Positions 3-55,326 of a stretch of DNA of 55,326 nucleotides are shown in pieces. The notes beneath the pieces are model-generated. The model saw only the letters and a program-made list of their open reading frames with translations, was not told where the DNA came from and ran no database searches. A program made the translations under genes and the position numbers. Source of the DNA: a bacterium (GTDB lineage: Bacteria; Vulcanimicrobiota; JABDET01); NCBI GenBank assembly GCA_021817145.1, contig JAKAVV010000019.1, forward strand, positions 1 to 55,326. Direction: 5' to 3'. The first letter of the stretch is position 1, and each line of letters starts with the position of its first letter.

Positions 3-1079
3 CTTACTCAAAAAGAAAAAGCCGTAAAAATCAGAGAGAAATTAAAAGATTTGTATTCAGTGATTAAGGGTTCAGATGAATATCTCAAATTCGCATTTCT
101 CACCGGTGTCTCTAAATTCAGCAAAGTCTCGATCTTCAGCGGATTAAATAATCTAAAAGATATTACCCTTGATCCCAGATTTGGAACTCTCTGTGGATAC
201 ACAGAAAAAGAACTGCTTGAAACGTTTAAGGATCGTCTTGAAGGAGTGAATCTGGAAGAGGTTAGAAACTGGTATAATGGGTACTCCTGGCTTGGTGAAA
301 AAGTCTACAACCCCTTTGATATCCTCCTTTACCTGGATACAAAGCAGTTTCACCCTTACTGGTTTGAAACAGGAACTCCCAGTTTCTTGATCCAACTGCT
401 TCAAGAAGAGAAATACCATTTACCTGATCTTGAAAATATTAGAGCAACAGATAGAATCTTAGACAGTTTTGATATTGACAGCATCCACCTTGAAACCCTC
501 CTTTTCCAAACCGGCTACCTCACCATTAAAACCAAAGAACAGTTAGGGGATAGAAATATTTATCTCCTTGCCTACCCAAACAAAGAAGTTAAAATCTCTC
601 TTACAGACGCCGTCCTCGATTCCCTTGCCCAGAAATTCATAGAGAAAGAGAAAAACATCGAAAAACTTTATAAAATCTTCATGGAAAATAAGATTCAAGA
701 GTTAAAAGATTTATTTTTCAGCTTTTTTGCTTCTATTCCGTATGAATGGTACACCAAAAACAATCTTTCTTCTTATGAAGGATTTTACGCTTCCATTGTT
801 TACACCTATTTCACTGCTTCAGGGTTAAATTGTGTGGTAGAAGATTCCACCTCAAAAGGGAAATTGGACATGGCAGTTTTTTACAAGAACCGCTGTTATC
901 TTTTTGAGTTCAAAGTTGTGGAGCTTGAGCCAGAAGGGAAAGCATTAGAACAGATTAAGAGGAAGAAGTATGAGGAAAAGTATCGTGGGAGATATGAGGA
1001 GATTTACTTGATTGGAGTGGAGTTCAGCGCCAAAGAGAGGAATGTTCTTCTTTTCGAGTGGGAAAAACTGCTGTCATAA
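3..1079 (+). CDS. AAA-ATPase-like / PD-(D/E)XK nuclease family protein (5' partial)
   Basis: The frame is open to the window edge, so the true start and the N-terminal ATPase part lie upstream; an internal TTG at 51 is not a convincing start. About 358 codons are visible. The C-terminal ~115 residues form a PD-(D/E)XK-type nuclease domain: a helix with SSYEGFYASIVYTYF, then G-K-L-D-M-A-V, then an E-F-K motif, giving the D...ExK arrangement. The upstream part (NWYNGYSW, YNPFDILLYL, YWFETGTPSFL) matches the widespread family in which an AAA-ATPase-like region is joined to a PDDEXK_9-type domain. Cellular role is unknown for this family; phage defence, toxin or mobile-element functions have been proposed. 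A second, broken copy of the nuclease domain lies at 1770-2151. It stops 5 bp before the convergent Uma2 gene. Confidence 0.8.
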   Translation, partial: LTQKEKAVKIREKLKDLYSVIKGSDEYLKFAFLTGVSKFSKVSIFSGLNNLKDITLDPRFGTLCGYTEKELLETFKDRLEGVNLEEVRNWYNGYSWLGEKVYNPFDILLYLDTKQFHPYWFETGTPSFLIQLLQEEKYHLPDLENIRATDRILDSFDIDSIHLETLLFQTGYLTIKTKEQLGDRNIYLLAYPNKEVKISLTDAVLDSLAQKFIEKEKNIEKLYKIFMENKIQELKDLFFSFFASIPYEWYTKNNLSSYEGFYASIVYTYFTASGLNCVVEDSTSKGKLDMAVFYKNRCYLFEFKVVELEPEGKALEQIKRKKYEEKYRGRYEEIYLIGVEFSAKERNVLLFEWEKLLS

Positions 1080-1084
1080 AGCAG

Positions 1085-1651
1085 TTAAACCCACAATTCT
1101 TTCAATGAAAACTCAAGCCCAGGGAAAAGAGAAGGTTTAATGATTTCGTTCCCCTGCTTTTTTGCGATCAACTGATACTCCCCTTTCACCAACTCATACA
1201 TCTCCATTGTTTTTTCCATCGGATCCACGATCCAGCAGCGAGGAACTTTAAACTGAGCGTAAAGTTTAAATTTTTTCGTCCGATCCATTTTCTTGTTTCC
1301 CTTAGAAAGCACTTCTACGACCAGATCCGGTGAACCAAAAATCCCGCGCTCTTTAATCAAATTTTTCTTTGCATTGGAAACATAAACCAGATCCGGTTCA
1401 ACGACATGGATATCAGATAGAACAACAGCAAACGGAGCGCAGATCACTTCTCCAATAGGATTCTTATTAAGATATTGATACAGAATTCCAGCCAAACGGG
1501 TGGTTGCTCTTTGATGAGAAAATCCAGGGGGTGGTGTCATGAACAGTTCTCCTTCGATAAGCTCGTACTGTTTCCCATCATCAGGAAGCAGGAAGTAATC
1601 ATGATAATTTAAGAGACTGCTTTCTTCAAATTTTGGTCTTGCAAGGCTCAT
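1085..1651 (-). CDS. Uma2 family (DUF820) endonuclease-like protein
   Basis: A 188-residue protein of the Uma2/DUF820 family, a PD-(D/E)XK-fold group expanded in cyanobacteria and other bacteria; its natural substrate is not established. Visible motifs: YELIEGELFMTPPPG near residues 28-43, VVEPDLVYVSN around 95, and GSPDLVVEVLSKGNKK around 117, which supplies the acidic and lysine residues of the active site. YAQFKVPRCWIVDP follows, then the family-typical C-terminus FPGLEFSLKELW. The ATG at 1651 has an AAGGT ribosome site 8 nt upstream. A close paralogue lies at 14558-15124. The gene sits between an intact and a broken PD-(D/E)XK copy, convergent with the first. Confidence 0.85.
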   Translation of the reverse strand: MSLARPKFEESSLLNYHDYFLLPDDGKQYELIEGELFMTPPPGFSHQRATTRLAGILYQYLNKNPIGEVICAPFAVVLSDIHVVEPDLVYVSNAKKNLIKERGIFGSPDLVVEVLSKGNKKMDRTKKFKLYAQFKVPRCWIVDPMEKTMEMYELVKGEYQLIAKKQGNEIIKPSLFPGLEFSLKELWV

Positions 1652-13666: not shown

Positions 13667-14581
13667 TTGAAAAAGCCTAAAATCTCCTGGATGAAATGGA
13701 TGTCAAATTTTTTCTCTCAGGTAAAGGATATTTTAAGAAAAGGGGATATCACAGATGCTTTATTCGAAAATCTGGAAGAACTCCTTTTACAAGCTGACAC
13801 AGGGACTGCAGCGGCCGAGTATTTAGTGGCGCAGTTAAAAAAAGAAGCTTCTGAAAAACGTTTAAAAGATTCCTGGAAATTGATGGACTGCTTTAAAGAG
13901 CAGCTTGTGATTCTTTTAGGGGAGACCATTTCACCTGTTCATTTTGCAGTGAACGGACCTGCGATTTTTTTGATGGTAGGGGTGAATGGCAGCGGGAAAA
14001 CAACGACCCTTGGAAAACTTGCCGCTTATTTTAAATCCCAGGGGAAAAAGGTTTTTTTAGGAGCTGCCGATACGTTCAGAGCAGCTGCTATTGATCAACT
14101 CGAGGTATGGGCGCATCAGGTTGGTGTTGAAGTGATTAAACACAAAGAAGGGGCTGATCCAGGAGCAGTCGCTTATGATACTGTAAAAGCCGCTGCTGCT
14201 CGTCATGCTGATATCGCCATGATTGATACAGCAGGAAGGCTGCATACAAAAACCAGTTTGATGGAAGAACTGAAAAAGGTTAAAAAGGTGATTCAAAAAG
14301 AGATTCCTCTTGCCCCTCATGAGGTTTTTTTAGTTCTGGATGCCACCACTGGCCAGAATGCGTTGAACCAGGCTAAAATGTTTAAAGAAGCGGTTGGCGT
14401 AACAGGGATCATTGTGACCAAATTGGACGGAACGGCAAAAGGGGGGGCTCTTTTAGCCATCAGACAGGAATTAAACGTGCCGATAAAATTTATTGGCGTT
14501 GGTGAAAAAGTGGAAACCCTTCACCCTTTTAATCCCTCTTCTTTTGTGGAATCTCTCCTAAATCCACAACTCTTTCAATGA
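13667..14581 (+). CDS. ftsY: Signal recognition particle receptor FtsY
   Basis: A 304-residue SRP GTPase without the long acidic A domain, as in many bacteria. N domain: residues ~15-90 (ILRKGDITDALFENLEELLLQADTG). G domain: GVNGSGKTTTLGKLA (P loop), DTFRAAAIDQLEVWA, DTAGRLHTK, TKLDGTAKGGA and PIKFIGVGEKVETLHPF. It docks ribosome-SRP complexes at the inner membrane. TTG 13667 with AAAGGA 7 nt upstream is taken as start; ATG at 13691 is the alternative. The natural C-terminus of the family (FNPSSFVESLL) is followed by six extra codons, NPQLFQ, read from the antisense of the Uma2 gene at 14558-15124, which also supplies the TGA stop. Confidence 0.92.
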   Translation: MKKPKISWMKWMSNFFSQVKDILRKGDITDALFENLEELLLQADTGTAAAEYLVAQLKKEASEKRLKDSWKLMDCFKEQLVILLGETISPVHFAVNGPAIFLMVGVNGSGKTTTLGKLAAYFKSQGKKVFLGAADTFRAAAIDQLEVWAHQVGVEVIKHKEGADPGAVAYDTVKAAAARHADIAMIDTAGRLHTKTSLMEELKKVKKVIQKEIPLAPHEVFLVLDATTGQNALNQAKMFKEAVGVTGIIVTKLDGTAKGGALLAIRQELNVPIKFIGVGEKVETLHPFNPSSFVESLLNPQLFQ

Positions 14582-15124
14582 AAACTCTTGCCCAGGGAAG
14601 AGAGTAGATTTAACGATTTCACTCCCCTGTTTTTTTGAAGTCAAGCGGTATTCCCCTTTCTCTACTTGATACAGCTCCATTGTTTTTTCCATCGGATCCA
14701 CGATCCAGTAATGGGGAATTTTAAATTGAGCGTAAAGTTTGAATTTAGTGATCCGATCCATTTTTTTATTCCCTTTAGAAAGCACTTCTACTACCAGGTC
14801 AGGAGAACCAAAAATCCCTCTTTCTTTAATCAAATTTTTCTTTTCTTTGGAGATATAAACTAAATCTGGTTCAACCACATGAATATCGGATAAAATAACT
14901 CCGATAGGAGAGCAAAAAACCTTTCCAATTGGATTCTTATCCAGGTATTGAGCTAAAATTTTAGTCAATTGAGTTACAGAATTTTGATGAAAAGTTCCAG
15001 GAGGCGGTGTCATGAACAGTTCTCCTTCGATAATCTGGTATCGTTTTCCGTTATCAGGAAGCAGAAAGTAATCACGATAATTGAAAAGATTCTTTTCCTC
15101 TATTTTAGGTCGAGTAAGAGACAT
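14558..15124 (-). CDS. Uma2 family (DUF820) endonuclease-like protein, second copy
   Basis: A 188-residue paralogue of the protein at 1085-1651, identical in length and clearly similar along its whole length: IIEGELFMTPPPG, VVEPDLVYISKEKKNLIKERG, GSPDLVVEVLSKGNKKMDR, YAQFKIPHYWIVDPMEKTME, FPGQEFSLKELWI. Active-site acidic residues and lysine are retained. ATG 15124 has GAGGG about 8 nt upstream. Its last eight codons overlap the end of ftsY on the opposite strand by 24 bp, which points to insertion at the ftsY 3' end. It stands alone between ftsY and the suf operon. Confidence 0.85.
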   Translation of the reverse strand: MSLTRPKIEEKNLFNYRDYFLLPDNGKRYQIIEGELFMTPPPGTFHQNSVTQLTKILAQYLDKNPIGKVFCSPIGVILSDIHVVEPDLVYISKEKKNLIKERGIFGSPDLVVEVLSKGNKKMDRITKFKLYAQFKIPHYWIVDPMEKTMELYQVEKGEYRLTSKKQGSEIVKSTLFPGQEFSLKELWI

Positions 15125-50629: not shown

Positions 50630-51826
50630 TTATTCCTCTCCTCTGTTCTTTTTATGCTGTAACACCCATCCAATAAAAGCGAAATTCATCTTTGGAACCT
50701 GAGTCAGCAGTTTGTTCAGCTCTTTCTCTGAAGAATGGAAACAACTCCCGATTTCTAATGTAAAGTTGAAGATGCCATTTGCCTGTTCATAATCCTCTGA
50801 GGATCCAGTGGTTGGATAAAGCCCAACAGACTGGTGAAGTTTAAAGTTTTCTCCGCCAGCTTTCTTCATGGCTTTTCCTGCTGCTAAATACTCCTGCACA
50901 TTTTTAACTTTTTCTTTTGTATATCCCCAGGGGTAAAGGATTTCATTTCCATAACTGTGGTGATCAATGATCCCAATTAAGTTTTTATGCTGCGCCATGA
51001 AATTTTGAAGAGCTTTTATTTCAGGCTCAGAGGCTCTATAAGGGCCTCTATAATCTTCATCCTTGGGATTGTTGGAAGCTCCGAGAGTCGTTTTATTTGA
51101 GTTATGAAACCCTGAAATTCGATAGATTGCTTGATGTTTTGGATCCCAGAAATTCCGATTTAAATCCACCCCAATCCCCACTTTTTGCTTAGTGCTGGAA
51201 GAGTCCAGTGAAGAGCTGTTTTGGTAGATCACGGCTCTATTTTTTCTCCAGAAACTGTTCATGGTTCTGGAATAATCGTACCCTTCAGGATTGACAACAG
51301 GAATAAACCAAAGTTCAGCTTCACGGAGAAATTTTGCTGCTTCTGGATCTGCTTTTCGCCCTTGGAGAAGGTTTAGAGCGGTTTGCATGGTTACCTTTCC
51401 AGTTGCCCATTCTCTTGCATGAATGAGCCCTGTAAACAGCACTGCGGGTTTTGGGGATGAGCTTTTTGGGGAAGAGCTTTTGGGGGAAGAGTTCTGGGAG
51501 GAATGAGAAGTTATCCTCATGGCATAAAGAGGGGTTCCATTGGCTCCTTTCCCGTATTCTACGATTTTAACCAGGGAAGGATATTGTTTTCTCAAGTCTT
51601 GCATTTGCTTGATGTAGTCTTGATAAAGAGGATATAAAGGGGCGCATTTCAATCTCAAATTGGATGGAGTAATGGATAAACCAAGCTTTCTTGTTTCAGC
51701 ATTTGATAAAGCAAGAGCATCTTTTTCCGTGGGGAGATTGTCAGGAAATTTTTCCCTGCTTCTGAATGTCCTGTTCCGGGTTGATTGGGGGGTGAAATCT
51801 CTCCTGACTTCTATAGGATTAGTCAT
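50630..51826 (-). CDS. M14 family zinc carboxypeptidase
   Basis: 398 residues. Zinc and substrate motifs: GLIHAREWATG (HxxE), VNPEGYDYSRT, VDLNRNFWDP (Arg), IDHHSYGNEILYPWGY (third His) and FTLEIGSCFH (catalytic Glu). The first ~75 residues lack a signal peptide; a polar linker of repeated SSPK units (~115-130) interrupts the domain before the HxxE motif, an odd place. It cuts C-terminal residues from peptides. A promoter TTGATT-17-TATACT lies at 51906-51878 and two 20-bp repeats fall between it and ATG 51826. Convergent with msrB. Confidence 0.87.
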   Translation of the reverse strand: MTNPIEVRRDFTPQSTRNRTFRSREKFPDNLPTEKDALALSNAETRKLGLSITPSNLRLKCAPLYPLYQDYIKQMQDLRKQYPSLVKIVEYGKGANGTPLYAMRITSHSSQNSSPKSSSPKSSSPKPAVLFTGLIHAREWATGKVTMQTALNLLQGRKADPEAAKFLREAELWFIPVVNPEGYDYSRTMNSFWRKNRAVIYQNSSSLDSSSTKQKVGIGVDLNRNFWDPKHQAIYRISGFHNSNKTTLGASNNPKDEDYRGPYRASEPEIKALQNFMAQHKNLIGIIDHHSYGNEILYPWGYTKEKVKNVQEYLAAGKAMKKAGGENFKLHQSVGLYPTTGSSEDYEQANGIFNFTLEIGSCFHSSEKELNKLLTQVPKMNFAFIGWVLQHKKNRGEE

Positions 51827-51834
51827 TTAACTGT

Positions 51835-51874
51835 TAAACACTCCTCTTGTTATATAAACACTCCTCTTGTTATC
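51835..51874. repeat. Two tandem 20-bp repeats before the carboxypeptidase gene
   Basis: TAAACACTCCTCTTGTTAT occurs twice with a period of 20 bp. Read on the reverse strand each copy contains AAGAGGAG, so the repeat doubles a ribosome-site-like sequence in the leader of the M14 gene. Confidence 0.85.
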
Positions 51875-51906: not shown

Positions 51907-52022
51907 TAAAGAATCTTTTCTGAGTTGTAAATTTTAATGCTGCAGCTGTCCTGCTTGCCTTACGAATTAAAACTTAATTTTTTTTAACAAACCGCATCAA
52001 TGTAAATGAGGAGGTAAAGGAG

Positions 52023-52448
52023 ATGGCATTAAGAAAAGAGAGTTTAGAGGTAAGAGTTGGGAAAATGGAAAGTGAAGTTGGGTTATTGAAACAGATTGTG
52101 GTGCAGCTGCCTCTTGAGATGCAGAACGTAAGGGAAGAGCTGACGAACTTGAAGCAGGAGATGAGTGCTGGTTTTGCTCAGATGAGGCAGGAGATGACTG
52201 CTGCCATTACTGCATTGACAGCATCTATCAATGCGGTTCGCCAAGAAATGAACGAGCGGTTTGCTCAAGTCGATCAAAGGTTTATTCAGATGGATCAGAA
52301 GTTTGCTCAAGTGGATCAAAGGTTTGCTCAAGTCGATCAGAAGTTTGATCATTTAGAACAGAAGCTGGATCGGAAAACCGATAGAGTTTTTTGGTGGACG
52401 ATCAGTCTTTTAACCGCTTTATGTATGGCTCTTTTTTTTAAACACTGA
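52023..52448 (+). CDS. Heptad-repeat coiled-coil protein with C-terminal membrane anchor, copy 1
   Basis: 141 residues, family not recognised. N-terminal ~85 residues are helical and charged with heptad spacing (ESLEVRVGKMESEVGLLKQIV, MRQEMTAAITALTASINAVRQEMNERF). Then come six exact 7-residue repeats: FAQVDQR, FIQMDQK, FAQVDQR, FAQVDQK, FDHLEQK, LDRKTDR. A single hydrophobic helix VFWWTISLLTALCMALFF and a KH tail end the protein, so it should be tail-anchored with the coiled coil in the cytoplasm. An ideal GAGGAGGT site precedes ATG 52023. The architecture recalls Bdr-like and DUF1640-like proteins, but I cannot assign one. A 98 percent identical copy is at 54739. Confidence 0.8.
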   Translation: MALRKESLEVRVGKMESEVGLLKQIVVQLPLEMQNVREELTNLKQEMSAGFAQMRQEMTAAITALTASINAVRQEMNERFAQVDQRFIQMDQKFAQVDQRFAQVDQKFDHLEQKLDRKTDRVFWWTISLLTALCMALFFKH

Positions 52449-52477
52449 AGAAAAGTAAACCCTGATGTGAAGTAAAT

Positions 52478-53101
52478 GTGGTGGGGTTATATTTTCCTAT
52501 TGTAAGTTCAGGTTGTGGAAGGGAAGCATTAGTTTGGGTATTGGTTTTGGGTGCAGCATTGGTTGTATTCTTCCCTAACTATTTAAAATACCGCAGAACC
52601 AAGCATCTCAGCCGTGGGCGTGCATGGAGAAAAGAGCCGAAGATTCATTCCACTTCGAAATTGAGAGACCAGATAATGAAGAATGAAGAGTTGAAGGAAG
52701 ATCTGCTGAAGCGGCTTGCGAAGCAGAGGGCAGTGCAGGCAGAAAGATGGGAAGAAGGACAGAGTGATTGGCAGGAGCAGCTGCAGGGGCAGAGCAGCCT
52801 TGAGAGGCAGAGCAGTCAGGTGCTGGAGAAGCAGAGTGGCTTGCAGGGGCAGAAGGAGCAGCTTCCTTCACTTCCTCATCAGAGGACAATTCGCAGATGG
52901 ATAAGAGTGCTTTCAGCTGGATGGGATCATCTACATAAAACCGTGGCTCGCTATTTTGATAAATGGTGGAATCTTTTTTGGTATCGGACGAGAAGTGGGG
53001 TTTTTGATCTCTTTTCTCTGCAGTCTTTTCTGGATGGATTATCCAGGGAGGAGAAGAGGAGGGGATCCCCTTACTACTACGCTTTTGTTCGTTCCCCTTA
53101 A
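52478..53101 (+). CDS. Hypothetical membrane protein with Q/S-rich middle
   Basis: Up to 207 residues from GTG 52478. A hydrophobic helix (ALVWVLVLGAALVVFFPNYL) near the N-terminus, a basic charged stretch, a low-complexity middle rich in Q, S, L and E (QLQGQSSLERQSSQVLEKQSGLQGQ), and a C-terminal part rich in W, R, F and Y (WIRVLSAGWDHLHKTVARYFDKWWNLFWYRT). No family recognised. There is no clear ribosome site. It begins 29 bp after copy 1 of the coiled-coil gene and could be co-transcribed. A reverse-strand frame covers the same region, so the coding strand is not certain. Confidence 0.45.
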   Translation: MVGLYFPIVSSGCGREALVWVLVLGAALVVFFPNYLKYRRTKHLSRGRAWRKEPKIHSTSKLRDQIMKNEELKEDLLKRLAKQRAVQAERWEEGQSDWQEQLQGQSSLERQSSQVLEKQSGLQGQKEQLPSLPHQRTIRRWIRVLSAGWDHLHKTVARYFDKWWNLFWYRTRSGVFDLFSLQSFLDGLSREEKRRGSPYYYAFVRSP

Positions 53102-53180
53102 AGGGGTAGGGTGACCAGTCCATTTTGTCCGTAATTGTCAGTTTTCCCAAACACGCCCCCCTTGTGGTACAGAATGTCTG

Positions 53181-53330
53181 CTGTGTGGGCCGCTCCTGGC
53201 TGCTTGGCTGCTGCTGTTTGCTGGCTGGCAGTTTGCTGCAGGTGTTGGCTGGCTGCTGCTTTTTGCCACTCTGTGTGGGCTGCTCCTGGCTGCTTGGCTG
53301 CTCCTGGCTGCTGGCTGGCAGTTTGCCGCT
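53181..53330. repeat. Low-complexity tandem repeat, ~90-bp period
   Basis: Two 60-bp units (53181-53240 and 53271-53330) share about 53 of 60 positions, both starting CTGTGTGGGC and ending near GGCTGGCAGTTTGC, and built from the short word GGCTGCT or TGGCTGC. All open frames through it give low-complexity protein (C/L/W/G or A/Q/S-rich), so I do not call a gene. No other feature was seen between 53102 and 53366. Confidence 0.75.
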
Positions 53331-53366
53331 TGCAAGCTGCCTCTTATACTTTTACTTTTTGGCAGC

Positions 53367-54530
53367 TTACTTCTTCTTTTGAAGGCGATCGCGGATCTGA
53401 TCCATGAGAACTATGTCAAGGATCGTCCATGCCATGGCTAAGGCTCCATCTCGAATCGCTTTTTCAGCGCTTGGGGAAACACAGGCAGCTGCAAATTCCG
53501 GCTGATGATTGACAGCAGGAAGAGAAGCGATTCCAATAAATGGATGGATTGAGGGGATAACCTGGGAGATATTCCCCATATCAGTTGAAGCAGCAGCCCT
53601 TTCTGCCAATTCTCCTAAATCAGGAAAAGTTCTGCCGAGAGATTCGGCATTTTTTTGGTAAAGAGAAGCGATTTCCAAATCATGTTTCATCTCTGCATAC
53701 GGTTTATCTCCGCCTGCAATTTCAAGCTGCGCCCCTGATGCTGTGGCTCCTGCTTCAAAACAGCGGTACACTCTGGATCTTAATTTTTCCAATTCACTGA
53801 TCGTGTTTTCACGAATTATGAAGCGGGCTGAAGAAAAAGCGGGAACAATGTTAGGAGCATCCCCTCCTTTTGTAATGATTCCATGAATTCGAGCAGTGGG
53901 GAGGATGTGCTGTCTTAAAAGACCGATGGAAACTTGAGCAATGGTCAAAGCATCAAGAGCATTGATACCTAATTCAGGGAGAGCAGAGGCATGAGATTCT
54001 TTCCCCGTATAACGAACTTCAAAAGAGCTGGCAGCGATCATTTTCGGCAGCACCAGATCATAAGGAGAAGGATGAACCATTAAAGCAGCATGGATATCTG
54101 AGAACACCCCTTTTTTCAAGAGGAGGATCTTGCCTGATCCATTTCCGATCTCTTCAGCTGGGGTCCCGATCAAAAAAATGGAAAAATCTAAGTCATCTGT
54201 CATTTCGCTTACAGCAGCAGCAGCGCCAACAGACATGGCTGCAATCAGATTATGTCCGCAAGCATGTCCAATTCCAGGAAGAGCATCATATTCAGCGCAG
54301 ACTGCGATTCTCAAACCTTTTGTTCCCCTGCGGGCAAGAAGGGCGGTTGGTAAACCTCCCACTCCTTTTTCCACAGTAAATCCAGCTTTTAGTAAAAGCT
54401 CTGAAATAAGTGATGCTGCTTCGTTTTCCTCAAAAGCAGTCTCAGGATGAGAATGGATCTTGCGGCTGAGATGGATAAGTGTATCATAAAAGTTATTGAA
54501 ACGCTTTTCAGCAGCTTCTTTAAAATTCAT
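53367..54530 (-). CDS. M20 family amidohydrolase / peptidase (AbgB/PM20D2-like)
   Basis: 387 residues. SRKIHSHPETAFEENEAASLI at the start, AVCAEYDALPGIGHACGHNLIAAM (~85-105, Cys/His metal site), IFLIGTPAEEIGNGSGKILLLKKG with the catalytic Glu, then a dimerisation domain and AAASTDMGNISQVIPSIHPFIGI near 320. Members split N-acyl amino acids, aminobenzoyl-glutamate or unusual dipeptides. ATG 54530 follows a weak site. It lies between the two coiled-coil copies on the opposite strand. Confidence 0.88.
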   Translation of the reverse strand: MNFKEAAEKRFNNFYDTLIHLSRKIHSHPETAFEENEAASLISELLLKAGFTVEKGVGGLPTALLARRGTKGLRIAVCAEYDALPGIGHACGHNLIAAMSVGAAAAVSEMTDDLDFSIFLIGTPAEEIGNGSGKILLLKKGVFSDIHAALMVHPSPYDLVLPKMIAASSFEVRYTGKESHASALPELGINALDALTIAQVSIGLLRQHILPTARIHGIITKGGDAPNIVPAFSSARFIIRENTISELEKLRSRVYRCFEAGATASGAQLEIAGGDKPYAEMKHDLEIASLYQKNAESLGRTFPDLGELAERAAASTDMGNISQVIPSIHPFIGIASLPAVNHQPEFAAACVSPSAEKAIRDGALAMAWTILDIVLMDQIRDRLQKKK

Positions 54531-54694
54531 AGTTGAAAATCTTTCTCTATGGATTTCTGAATGCCTTTTCTAAAAATTTCTAACTTTTTTCAACAAACCG
54601 CATCAATCCAGCAGAAATTCACTTTTAACCCCCTCTTTCTGCGGCTCTTTTTGACAGTTCTTTGACAAGGGTCTGTTAGACTGTCAGGGAGAGG

Positions 54695-54723
54695 TTGATT
54701 TCAACCTTAAAACTTGATAGAAT
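54695..54723 (+). promoter_or_regulatory. Promoter candidate for coiled-coil copy 2
   Basis: TTGATT (54695-54700) and TAGAAT (54718-54723), spacer 17 bp, directly before GAGGAGG. A small hairpin GGTTGATTTCAACC covers the -35 box. Copy 1 has no such sequence at this place. Confidence 0.5.
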
Positions 54724-54738
54724 GAGGAGGTAAAGGAA

Positions 54739-55164
54739 ATGGCATTAAGAAAAGAGAGTTTAGAGGTAAGAGTCGGAAAAATGGAAAGTGAAGTTGGGTT
54801 ATTGAAACAGATTGTGGTGCAGCTGCCTCTTGAGATGCAGAATGTAAGGGAAGAGCTGACGAACTTGAAGCAGGAGATGAGTGCTGGTTTTGCTCAGATG
54901 AGGCAGGAGATGACTGCTGCCATTACTGCATTGACAGCATCTATCAATGCAGTTCGCCAAGAAATGAACGAGCGGTTTGCTCAAGTCGATCAAAGGTTTA
55001 TTCAGATGGATCAGAAGTTTGCTCAAGTGGATCAAAGGTTTGCTCAAGTCGATCAGAAGTTTGATCATTTAGAACAGAAGCTGGATCGGAAAACCGATAG
55101 AGTTTTTTGGTGGACGATCAGTCTTTTAACCGCTTTATGCATGGCTCTTTATTTTAAACACTGA
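54739..55164 (+). CDS. Heptad-repeat coiled-coil protein with C-terminal membrane anchor, copy 2
   Basis: 141 residues, identical to copy 1 except for one Phe to Tyr change in the anchor helix. The DNA differs at seven positions over ~440 bp: one before the start, five silent, one giving the Phe/Tyr change. Same GAGGAGG site. The DNA identity starts near AATGAGGAGG (54722) and ends just after the TGA (55166), so the duplicated unit is almost exactly the gene. On the reverse strand its last 11 bases also encode the end of the Cas10-like remnant. Confidence 0.8.
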   Translation: MALRKESLEVRVGKMESEVGLLKQIVVQLPLEMQNVREELTNLKQEMSAGFAQMRQEMTAAITALTASINAVRQEMNERFAQVDQRFIQMDQKFAQVDQRFAQVDQKFDHLEQKLDRKTDRVFWWTISLLTALCMALYFKH

Positions 55165-55326
55165 AAGGAAGCAGCCCTTGAAGTGGAGCAAAATAAGCGC
55201 TGATCAGTAAAAATTTCTTGTTTTTATCATCATTGATCATTTCTTTATACAGACTTTGCGTTTGGTGATGGTACTGGTATAAAGCAGCGGCAAAAGCAGC
55301 TGTAACCCTTGAATGATCGTACAGCG
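55154..55326 (-). pseudogene. Cas10 (type III CRISPR) related fragment, partial at window edge
   Basis: The reverse frame from the window edge reads LYDHSRVTAAFAAALYQYHH, then 19 less conserved residues, then KKFLLISAYFAPLQGLLPFSV and a TAA at 55154-55156. LYDHSRVTAA(x)AAALY followed after a short gap by FLLISxxFxxxQ is the pattern of Cas10/Csm1-type proteins at the junction of the HD region and the first palm domain. Cas10 normally continues for several hundred residues with the GGDD palm; here it stops at once, and the last codons (F-S-V-stop) come from the antisense of the coiled-coil gene. I read it as a truncated cas10; the 5' part lies beyond the window. Confidence 0.6.

What the first reader, a model, noticed from the sequence alone, without database searches (positions are those of the whole stretch)
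52009..55166. Near-identical duplicated gene for a tail-anchored heptad-repeat protein
Two 141-residue proteins differ by one residue and their genes by seven bases, five of them silent. The flanks are unrelated beyond a few bases, so the gene itself is the unit that moves or is gene-converted. No transposase, terminal inverted repeat or target duplication is visible. This may be an uncharacterised mobile or multicopy membrane coiled-coil family.
Basis: seen in the sequence. Interest (0 to 1): 0.68.

Follow-up and report, generated by a model that had tools for sequence, protein, structure and literature searches.

The report
Multicopy membrane coiled-coil family, competence-type promoter
The two near-identical genes belong to a family of at least seven intact copies in this bacterium, encoding membrane-anchored rod proteins that keep the same head and anchor but vary in rod length, and several copies use a promoter shared with the cell's DNA-uptake and recombination genes (recA, radC, comM, comEA, comEC).

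Summary
The duplication is real: two 141-aa genes, six CDS differences (five silent, one F/Y) plus one base before the ATG. It is not an isolated pair. The genome holds seven intact near-identical copies (113-174 aa) plus remnants and more distant subfamilies. Copies share head and tail anchor; the helical stalk varies by in-frame blocks of 4, 7, 11 or 22 residues. A same-genus genome has its own set: copies are 92-100% identical within this genome but 62-63% (head) and 81-86% (tail) identical to the relative's. With mosaic SNPs, this indicates concerted evolution by recombination. The gene module has a fixed 5' edge, joined to a promoter leader in four copies and to three unrelated sequences in the others; no transposase or terminal repeats were seen. 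The leader carries TTGACA-N5-TTGACA-N6-TGTTA, found 29 times here and 27 in the relative (0 and 1 controls), almost nowhere else in the phylum sample. It precedes recA, radC, comM, comEA-like, comEC, Uma2 genes and 13 coiled-coil genes; no LexA was detected. I read this as a competence/recombination regulon (inferred). The protein's function is also inferred: a membrane-tethered cytoplasmic spacer or scaffold.

The parts
52023..52448 (+). copy A, 141-aa tail-anchored coiled-coil protein; no two-box promoter upstream
51975..52001 (+). residual leader block directly 5' of copy A, homologous to 54581-54607
52004..52048 (+). constant 5' module edge of copy A (AATGAGGAGGTAAAGGAG + first codons), same edge in copies C, D and in AAA-ATPase gene fusions
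52449..52463 (+). constant 3' module edge of copy A (AGAAAAGTAAACCC), after which copies diverge into at least three contexts
52478..53101 (+). 207-aa ORF of unknown family that follows copy A; pieces recur behind copy F, in C23 and at the start of C27
53367..54530 (-). M20 amidohydrolase/peptidase between the copies; a deletion remnant of it lies in C23 (L021:10231-10359)
54571..54720 (+). leader of copy B, shared with copies E, F and G
54651..54678 (+). two-box promoter motif TTGACA-N5-TTGACA-N6-TGTTA, the only one in the window
54739..55164 (+). copy B, 141-aa tail-anchored coiled-coil protein, promoter-bearing
50630..51826 (-). M14 zinc carboxypeptidase left of copy A; the relative's homologue has no flanking copy
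3..1079 (+). 3' part of a PF09820 AAA-ATPase / PDDEXK-type gene at the contig end; the same multicopy family lies among the coiled-coil copies in C23 and C27

Best explanation
The pair are two of at least seven intact paralogues of a short tail-anchored coiled-coil protein: fixed N-terminal head (about 44 residues), helical stalk of variable length, fixed C-terminal membrane anchor. SHOWN: copy number; in-frame stalk-length differences in blocks of 4, 7, 11 and 22 residues; near-identity inside the genome with strong divergence from the congener's own set; mosaic SNPs; a fixed module edge; and a two-box promoter leader on four of the seven copies. SHOWN: the same motif stands upstream of recA, radC, comM, an SLBB ComEA-like gene, comEC, Uma2 nucleases and other coiled-coil subfamilies. 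INFERRED: the motif is an activator site of a competence/recombination regulon. Copies are homogenised by homologous recombination (gene conversion), and unequal exchange between 21- and 33-bp repeats changes stalk length. Leaderless copies (A, C, D) are silent or read-through. The protein has no signal peptide-like N-terminus, so it probably stands in the cytoplasm, anchored in the inner membrane, as an oligomeric spacer or scaffold used when the cell takes up or recombines DNA.
For: Copies. Concerted evolution: head and tail DNA 96-100% and 92-99% within G000, but 62-63% and 81-86% against G001 copies, about the same for every G000 copy; G001 shows the same fixed-head, fixed-anchor, variable-stalk pattern. 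Recombination: 163 of 325 informative site pairs fail the four-gamete test; neighbouring sites are more compatible than shuffled ones, P = 0.0036; copy G combines a B-like leader and head with an E-like stalk. Promoter: 29 and 27 sites in the two congeners against 0 and 1 controls; at one mismatch 22 and 21, then 1 in the next genus and 1 in the other 35 genomes. Genes confirmed by HMM: RecA, RadC, YifB/ComM, SLBB ComEA-like, ComEC, Uma2. About 0.06 of five named genes would be expected beside 29 random sites; four were found (P about 4e-7, assuming 2600 genes). G000 comEC has a weaker version (4 mismatches). No LexA found at 97% completeness. In pneumococcus comEA, comEC, radC and recA are late-competence genes (PMC6560143). 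Single helix 8-140.
Against: dprA, a hallmark competence gene, has no good site (best 5 mismatches). A good part of the regulon genes have no known function. The regulator is not identified, and no expression data exist. Assembly breaks at repeats may hide further copies, and the order of C23/C27/C39 is not known. Recent amplification in each species would also give within-genome similarity, although mosaicism argues for exchange. Nothing tests the scaffold function or the topology.
Confidence: 0.62

Rival explanations
1. A simple recent tandem or segmental duplication of one gene, with no special biology.
For: A and B lie 2.7 kb apart and differ by 6 CDS bases; a larger segment including the M20 gene was duplicated to C23.
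Against: Seven intact copies on three contigs plus remnants, mosaic site patterns, the same pattern independently in the same-genus genome, and a fixed module edge in four upstream contexts.
Confidence: 0.12
2. The gene (RBS to just after the stop) is a mobile cassette moved by machinery in trans, for example the multicopy AAA-ATPase/PD-(D/E)XK proteins (DUF1703) interspersed with it.
For: Constant 5' edge in four upstream contexts (A, C, D/K1, leader) and 3' edge near AAGTAAACCC in at least three contexts; copy C abuts a DUF2283 gene that has no start codon left; 11 PF09820 matches in the genome, two of them fused to the same RBS and first codons.
Against: No transposase, inverted repeats or target duplication; the 43-bp homology island and ordinary recombination can also move edges; segmental duplications are present; PF09820 proteins have no demonstrated transposition.
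Confidence: 0.15
3. The promoter motif marks a DNA-damage or general stress regulon, not competence.
For: recA and radC carry repair-linked names, and some sites precede genes of no known competence role. dprA lacks a site.
Against: comEA-like, comEC and comM genes have the motif or a close variant in one or both genomes; no LexA was found, so a classical SOS response is unlikely.
Confidence: 0.3
4. The copies are members of the mitochondrial/bacterial CCDC90 (DUF1640) family of membrane coiled coils.
For: Same general layout: N-terminal head, stalk, C-terminal membrane anchor; DUF1640 is described as a prokaryotic and mitochondrial membrane coiled-coil family (PMC4786415).
Against: PF07798 scores 16 bits against a cut-off of 33.5, no better than many unrelated coiled coils.
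Confidence: 0.1

Closest known systems
DUF1640 / CCDC90-like membrane coiled coils (PF07798)
   Same: head, coiled-coil stalk and C-terminal membrane anchor (layout)
   Different: score far below the family cut-off; beta-layer motif not tested; multicopy concerted evolution and this regulon are not part of that family as I know it
DUF1703 (PF09820 AAA-ATPase + PDDEXK_9) multigene expansions, e.g. in Cardinium cCpun (PMC6387759)
   Same: multicopy family with recombination between paralogues; members of DUF1703 are interspersed with the coiled-coil copies here
   Different: different protein; the Cardinium paralogues average only 39% identity and are described as not homogenised, whereas these are 89-98% identical
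Late-competence regulon of Streptococcus pneumoniae (PMC6560143)
   Same: comEA, comEC, radC and recA under shared control
   Different: that one is under ComX; here an 11-bp direct repeat with an extended -10, regulator unknown; the coiled coils and Uma2 nucleases have no counterpart in the parts I read
Silent-cassette variation systems (pilin/vls type; from general knowledge)
   Same: promoter-bearing and promoterless near-identical copies that recombine
   Different: a predicted cytoplasmic tail-anchored protein, several promoter-bearing loci, no single expression site shown

Membership tests
DUF1640 / CCDC90-like (PF07798) | profile score over the curated cut-off | tested here: not met
   16.0 and 15.9 bits against 33.5
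DUF1640 / CCDC90-like (PF07798) | head, stalk, C-terminal anchor layout | tested here: met
   alignment A3 and AlphaFold helix 8-140 with hydrophobic C-terminus
XhlA (PF10779) | profile score over the curated cut-off | tested here: not met
   16.6 bits against 34.7
Insertion sequence / transposon | transposase gene within the repeated unit | tested here: not met
   the unit holds only the coiled-coil ORF
Insertion sequence / transposon | terminal inverted repeats and target duplication | tested here: not met
   none seen at the aligned borders
Insertion sequence / transposon | precise borders in several contexts | tested here: met
   same 5' edge in four upstream contexts
Competence regulon | DNA-uptake genes share the site (comEA, comEC) | tested here: met
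   comEA-like in both genomes with 2 mismatches; comEC in G001 with 1, in G000 only with 4
Competence regulon | recA, radC and comM share the site | tested here: met
   recA and radC in both genomes; comM in G000
Competence regulon | dprA shares the site | tested here: not met
   dprA present, best 5 mismatches upstream
Competence regulon | induction together with transformation | not testable with these tools
   no expression data
LexA/SOS regulon | LexA repressor encoded in the genome | tested here: not met
   PF01726 no match in a 97% complete genome
Concertedly evolving gene family | paralogues more alike within a genome than between species | tested here: met
Concertedly evolving gene family | mosaic site patterns | tested here: met

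The most novel reading that the evidence does not exclude
A competence-controlled variation system: promoterless copies act as donors that rewrite promoter-bearing copies through recombination with RecA, whose gene carries the same promoter motif. The exchange changes only the length of the coiled-coil stalk while head and anchor stay constant, giving the cell a changing set of membrane-tethered spacers during DNA uptake.
Probability: 0.12. Interest if true: 0.8.

Novelty: new variant of a known kind. Interest (0 to 1): 0.6.

Why it matters
It turns an odd duplicated gene into a testable system in a poorly characterised bacterial lineage: a homogenised family of membrane coiled coils whose only large variation is stalk length, tied by one promoter motif to the DNA-uptake and recombination genes. 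If confirmed, it would give a predicted competence regulon in a lineage without a detectable LexA, name a new class of proteins in it, and help explain why small 'hypothetical' coiled-coil and Uma2-type nuclease families multiply in such genomes.

Tried and rejected
Viral contigs and phage records: no relative; plasmids: four weak coiled-coil matches only. PADLOC and PHROG matches are generic coiled-coil hits. Rfam: nothing in the window or the repeat contigs. Profile search of solved structures returned only coiled coils such as apolipoproteins and haemagglutinin, taken as compositional. A Pho-box reading of the direct repeat was considered from memory; it was not tested against phosphate genes and is kept only as an analogy. 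SOS control: LexA not found. Retroposition of the mRNA was considered because of the fixed edges; reverse transcriptases were not searched. No paper was found joining Uma2 to natural competence as a topic or describing a similar coiled-coil cassette system; the paper search covers open-licence text only.

Full report
OBSERVATION. The two ORFs are as described. The CDSs differ at six positions, five silent and one F/Y change at residue 138; a seventh difference is the base just before the ATG. The flanks are less unrelated than stated: a 27-bp block directly upstream of copy A matches the start of copy B's leader at 25 of 27 positions, reached by none of 2000 shuffles. Copy A therefore looks like a copy that lost about 113 bp of leader.

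COPIES IN THE GENOME. The window is contig C39 of a 2.66-Mb, 42-contig genome. A protein search finds intact copies at C39 (A, B), C23 (C 138 aa, D 127, E 113, F 174) and C5 (G 120), and remnants at C27 and C23. A DNA search with the leader adds leader-only remnants and two places where the RBS and the first codons are fused to a PF09820 AAA-ATPase gene. Eleven PF09820 matches lie in C2, C12, C14, C23, C27 and C39, most of them close to contig ends, so the assembly breaks at this repeat family and the copy number is a minimum. The segment 52500-55165 recurs in C23 with the M20 peptidase reduced to a remnant, so some duplication was segmental.

ANATOMY. All seven proteins share residues 1-44 nearly unchanged and the last 35 or so; they differ in the stalk by in-frame blocks of 4, 7, 11 and 22 residues. 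AlphaFold gives one helix, 8-140 (mean pLDDT 86). More distant subfamilies in the same genome (C7, C9, C25, C32, C33, C40) have the same layout and the head signature L-x-x-R-[VIA]-x-x-x-E. In C32 three neighbouring copies again share leader, head and anchor and differ in stalk length.

HOW THE COPIES EVOLVE. Within this genome the head DNA is 96-100% and the tail DNA 92-99% identical between copies; against the same-genus genome G001 every copy is 62-63% (head) and 81-86% (tail) identical. G001 has its own near-identical set with variable stalks. Among 26 informative sites 163 of 325 pairs fail the four-gamete test, and neighbouring sites are more compatible than in shuffled order (P = 0.0036); copy G carries a B-like leader and head with an E-like stalk. 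This is the signature of exchange between paralogues. Recent independent amplification is a lesser alternative. In G001 the homologues of M20 and M14 have no flanking copies, so A and B are at lineage-specific places.

MODULE EDGES. The 5' edge AATGAGGAGG is the same in copies joined to the leader (B, E, F, G) and in copies joined to three unrelated sequences (A, C, D; D's sequence is also in front of an AAA-ATPase gene); the 3' edge lies just after AAGTAAACCC, followed by at least three contexts. Copy C abuts a DUF2283 gene with no start codon left. This is cassette-like, but there is no transposase, terminal repeat or target duplication, and no phage, viral or close plasmid relative.

PROMOTER AND REGULON. 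The leader holds TTGACA-N5-TTGACA-N6-TGTTA. The pattern was fixed from the leader sequences, before the genes behind the other sites were known. With up to two mismatches it occurs 29 times in this genome and 27 in G001 against 0 and 1 reversed-pattern controls. With one mismatch it occurs 22 and 21 times in these two, once in the next genus, where it stands in front of a coiled-coil gene, and once in 35 other genomes of the phylum. The composite is TTTTTGACA-N5-TTGACA-N6-TGTTAnAnT; the extended -10 and the lack of a correctly spaced -35 suggest an activator-dependent promoter (inference). Downstream genes include 13 coiled-coil genes in this genome, Uma2 nucleases, recA, radC, comM and comEA-like; in G001 recA, radC, comEA-like, comEC, Uma2 and coiled coils, with the key ones confirmed by Pfam and NCBIfam. 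G000 comEC has a four-mismatch version. dprA does not have a good site. No LexA was found. About 0.06 of five named genes would be expected beside 29 random sites; four were found (assuming about 2600 genes and independent placement).

FUNCTION. Established knowledge: comEA, comEC, radC and recA are late-competence genes in pneumococcus (PMC6560143). Inference: the coiled coils belong to a competence/recombination regulon. With no signal peptide-like start and a C-terminal anchor they are probably cytoplasmic and tethered to the inner membrane, acting as oligomeric spacers or scaffolds. Copies without the leader may be silent. None of these steps has been tested by experiment.

COMPARISON. The layout resembles DUF1640/CCDC90 proteins but the profile score is far below cut-off, so membership is not claimed. 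Multicopy DUF1703 expansions with recombination are known in Cardinium (PMC6387759), and the PD-(D/E)XK assignment of DUF1703 is from PMC1913061. I found no description of this coiled-coil family or of this regulon; the paper search covers open-licence text only.

VERDICT. Multicopy status, concerted evolution and the shared promoter motif are well supported; the competence reading is likely; the protein's function and any active cassette mobility remain open.

Noticed in passing
G000 C16:16189-18538, C20:20958; window 1085-1651 and 14558-15124: Several Uma2-type nuclease genes: four (C16 x3, C20) carry the same two-box promoter; those in the window do not show it. G001 has a similar set.
   Followed up: partly
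G000 C32:48115-51534: Three neighbouring copies of a second coiled-coil subfamily with near-identical leader, head and anchor and different stalk lengths (92, 110 and 121 aa).
   Followed up: partly
L115 (G000 C19:17658): A 417-aa protein behind a two-mismatch motif has a weak match to the peptidase-domain family PF07737 (E 2e-7); function unknown.
   Followed up: no
G001 C28:25604 and 31172: Two genes with the same leader encode coiled-coil proteins with a C-terminal part whose motifs look like a PD-(D/E)XK nuclease by eye; no Pfam nuclease match.
   Followed up: partly
L021 5400-8700: HicAB, ParD/ParE-like toxin-antitoxin pairs and a DUF2283 gene lie among the coiled-coil copies of C23.
   Followed up: partly
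window 758-1066 and 1821-2137: Near-identical repeats of the C-terminal part of the AAA-ATPase/PDDEXK-type genes at the left contig end; contigs C2, C12, C23, C27 and C39 carry this family near their ends.
   Followed up: partly
L110, L133, L093, L135, L102, L138, L120, L145: Several regulon proteins without any known family are conserved together with the motif in both congeners.
   Followed up: no
window 51835-51874: A 20-bp tandem repeat (TAAACACTCCTCTTGTTATA, two copies) just upstream of the M14 peptidase start.
   Followed up: no
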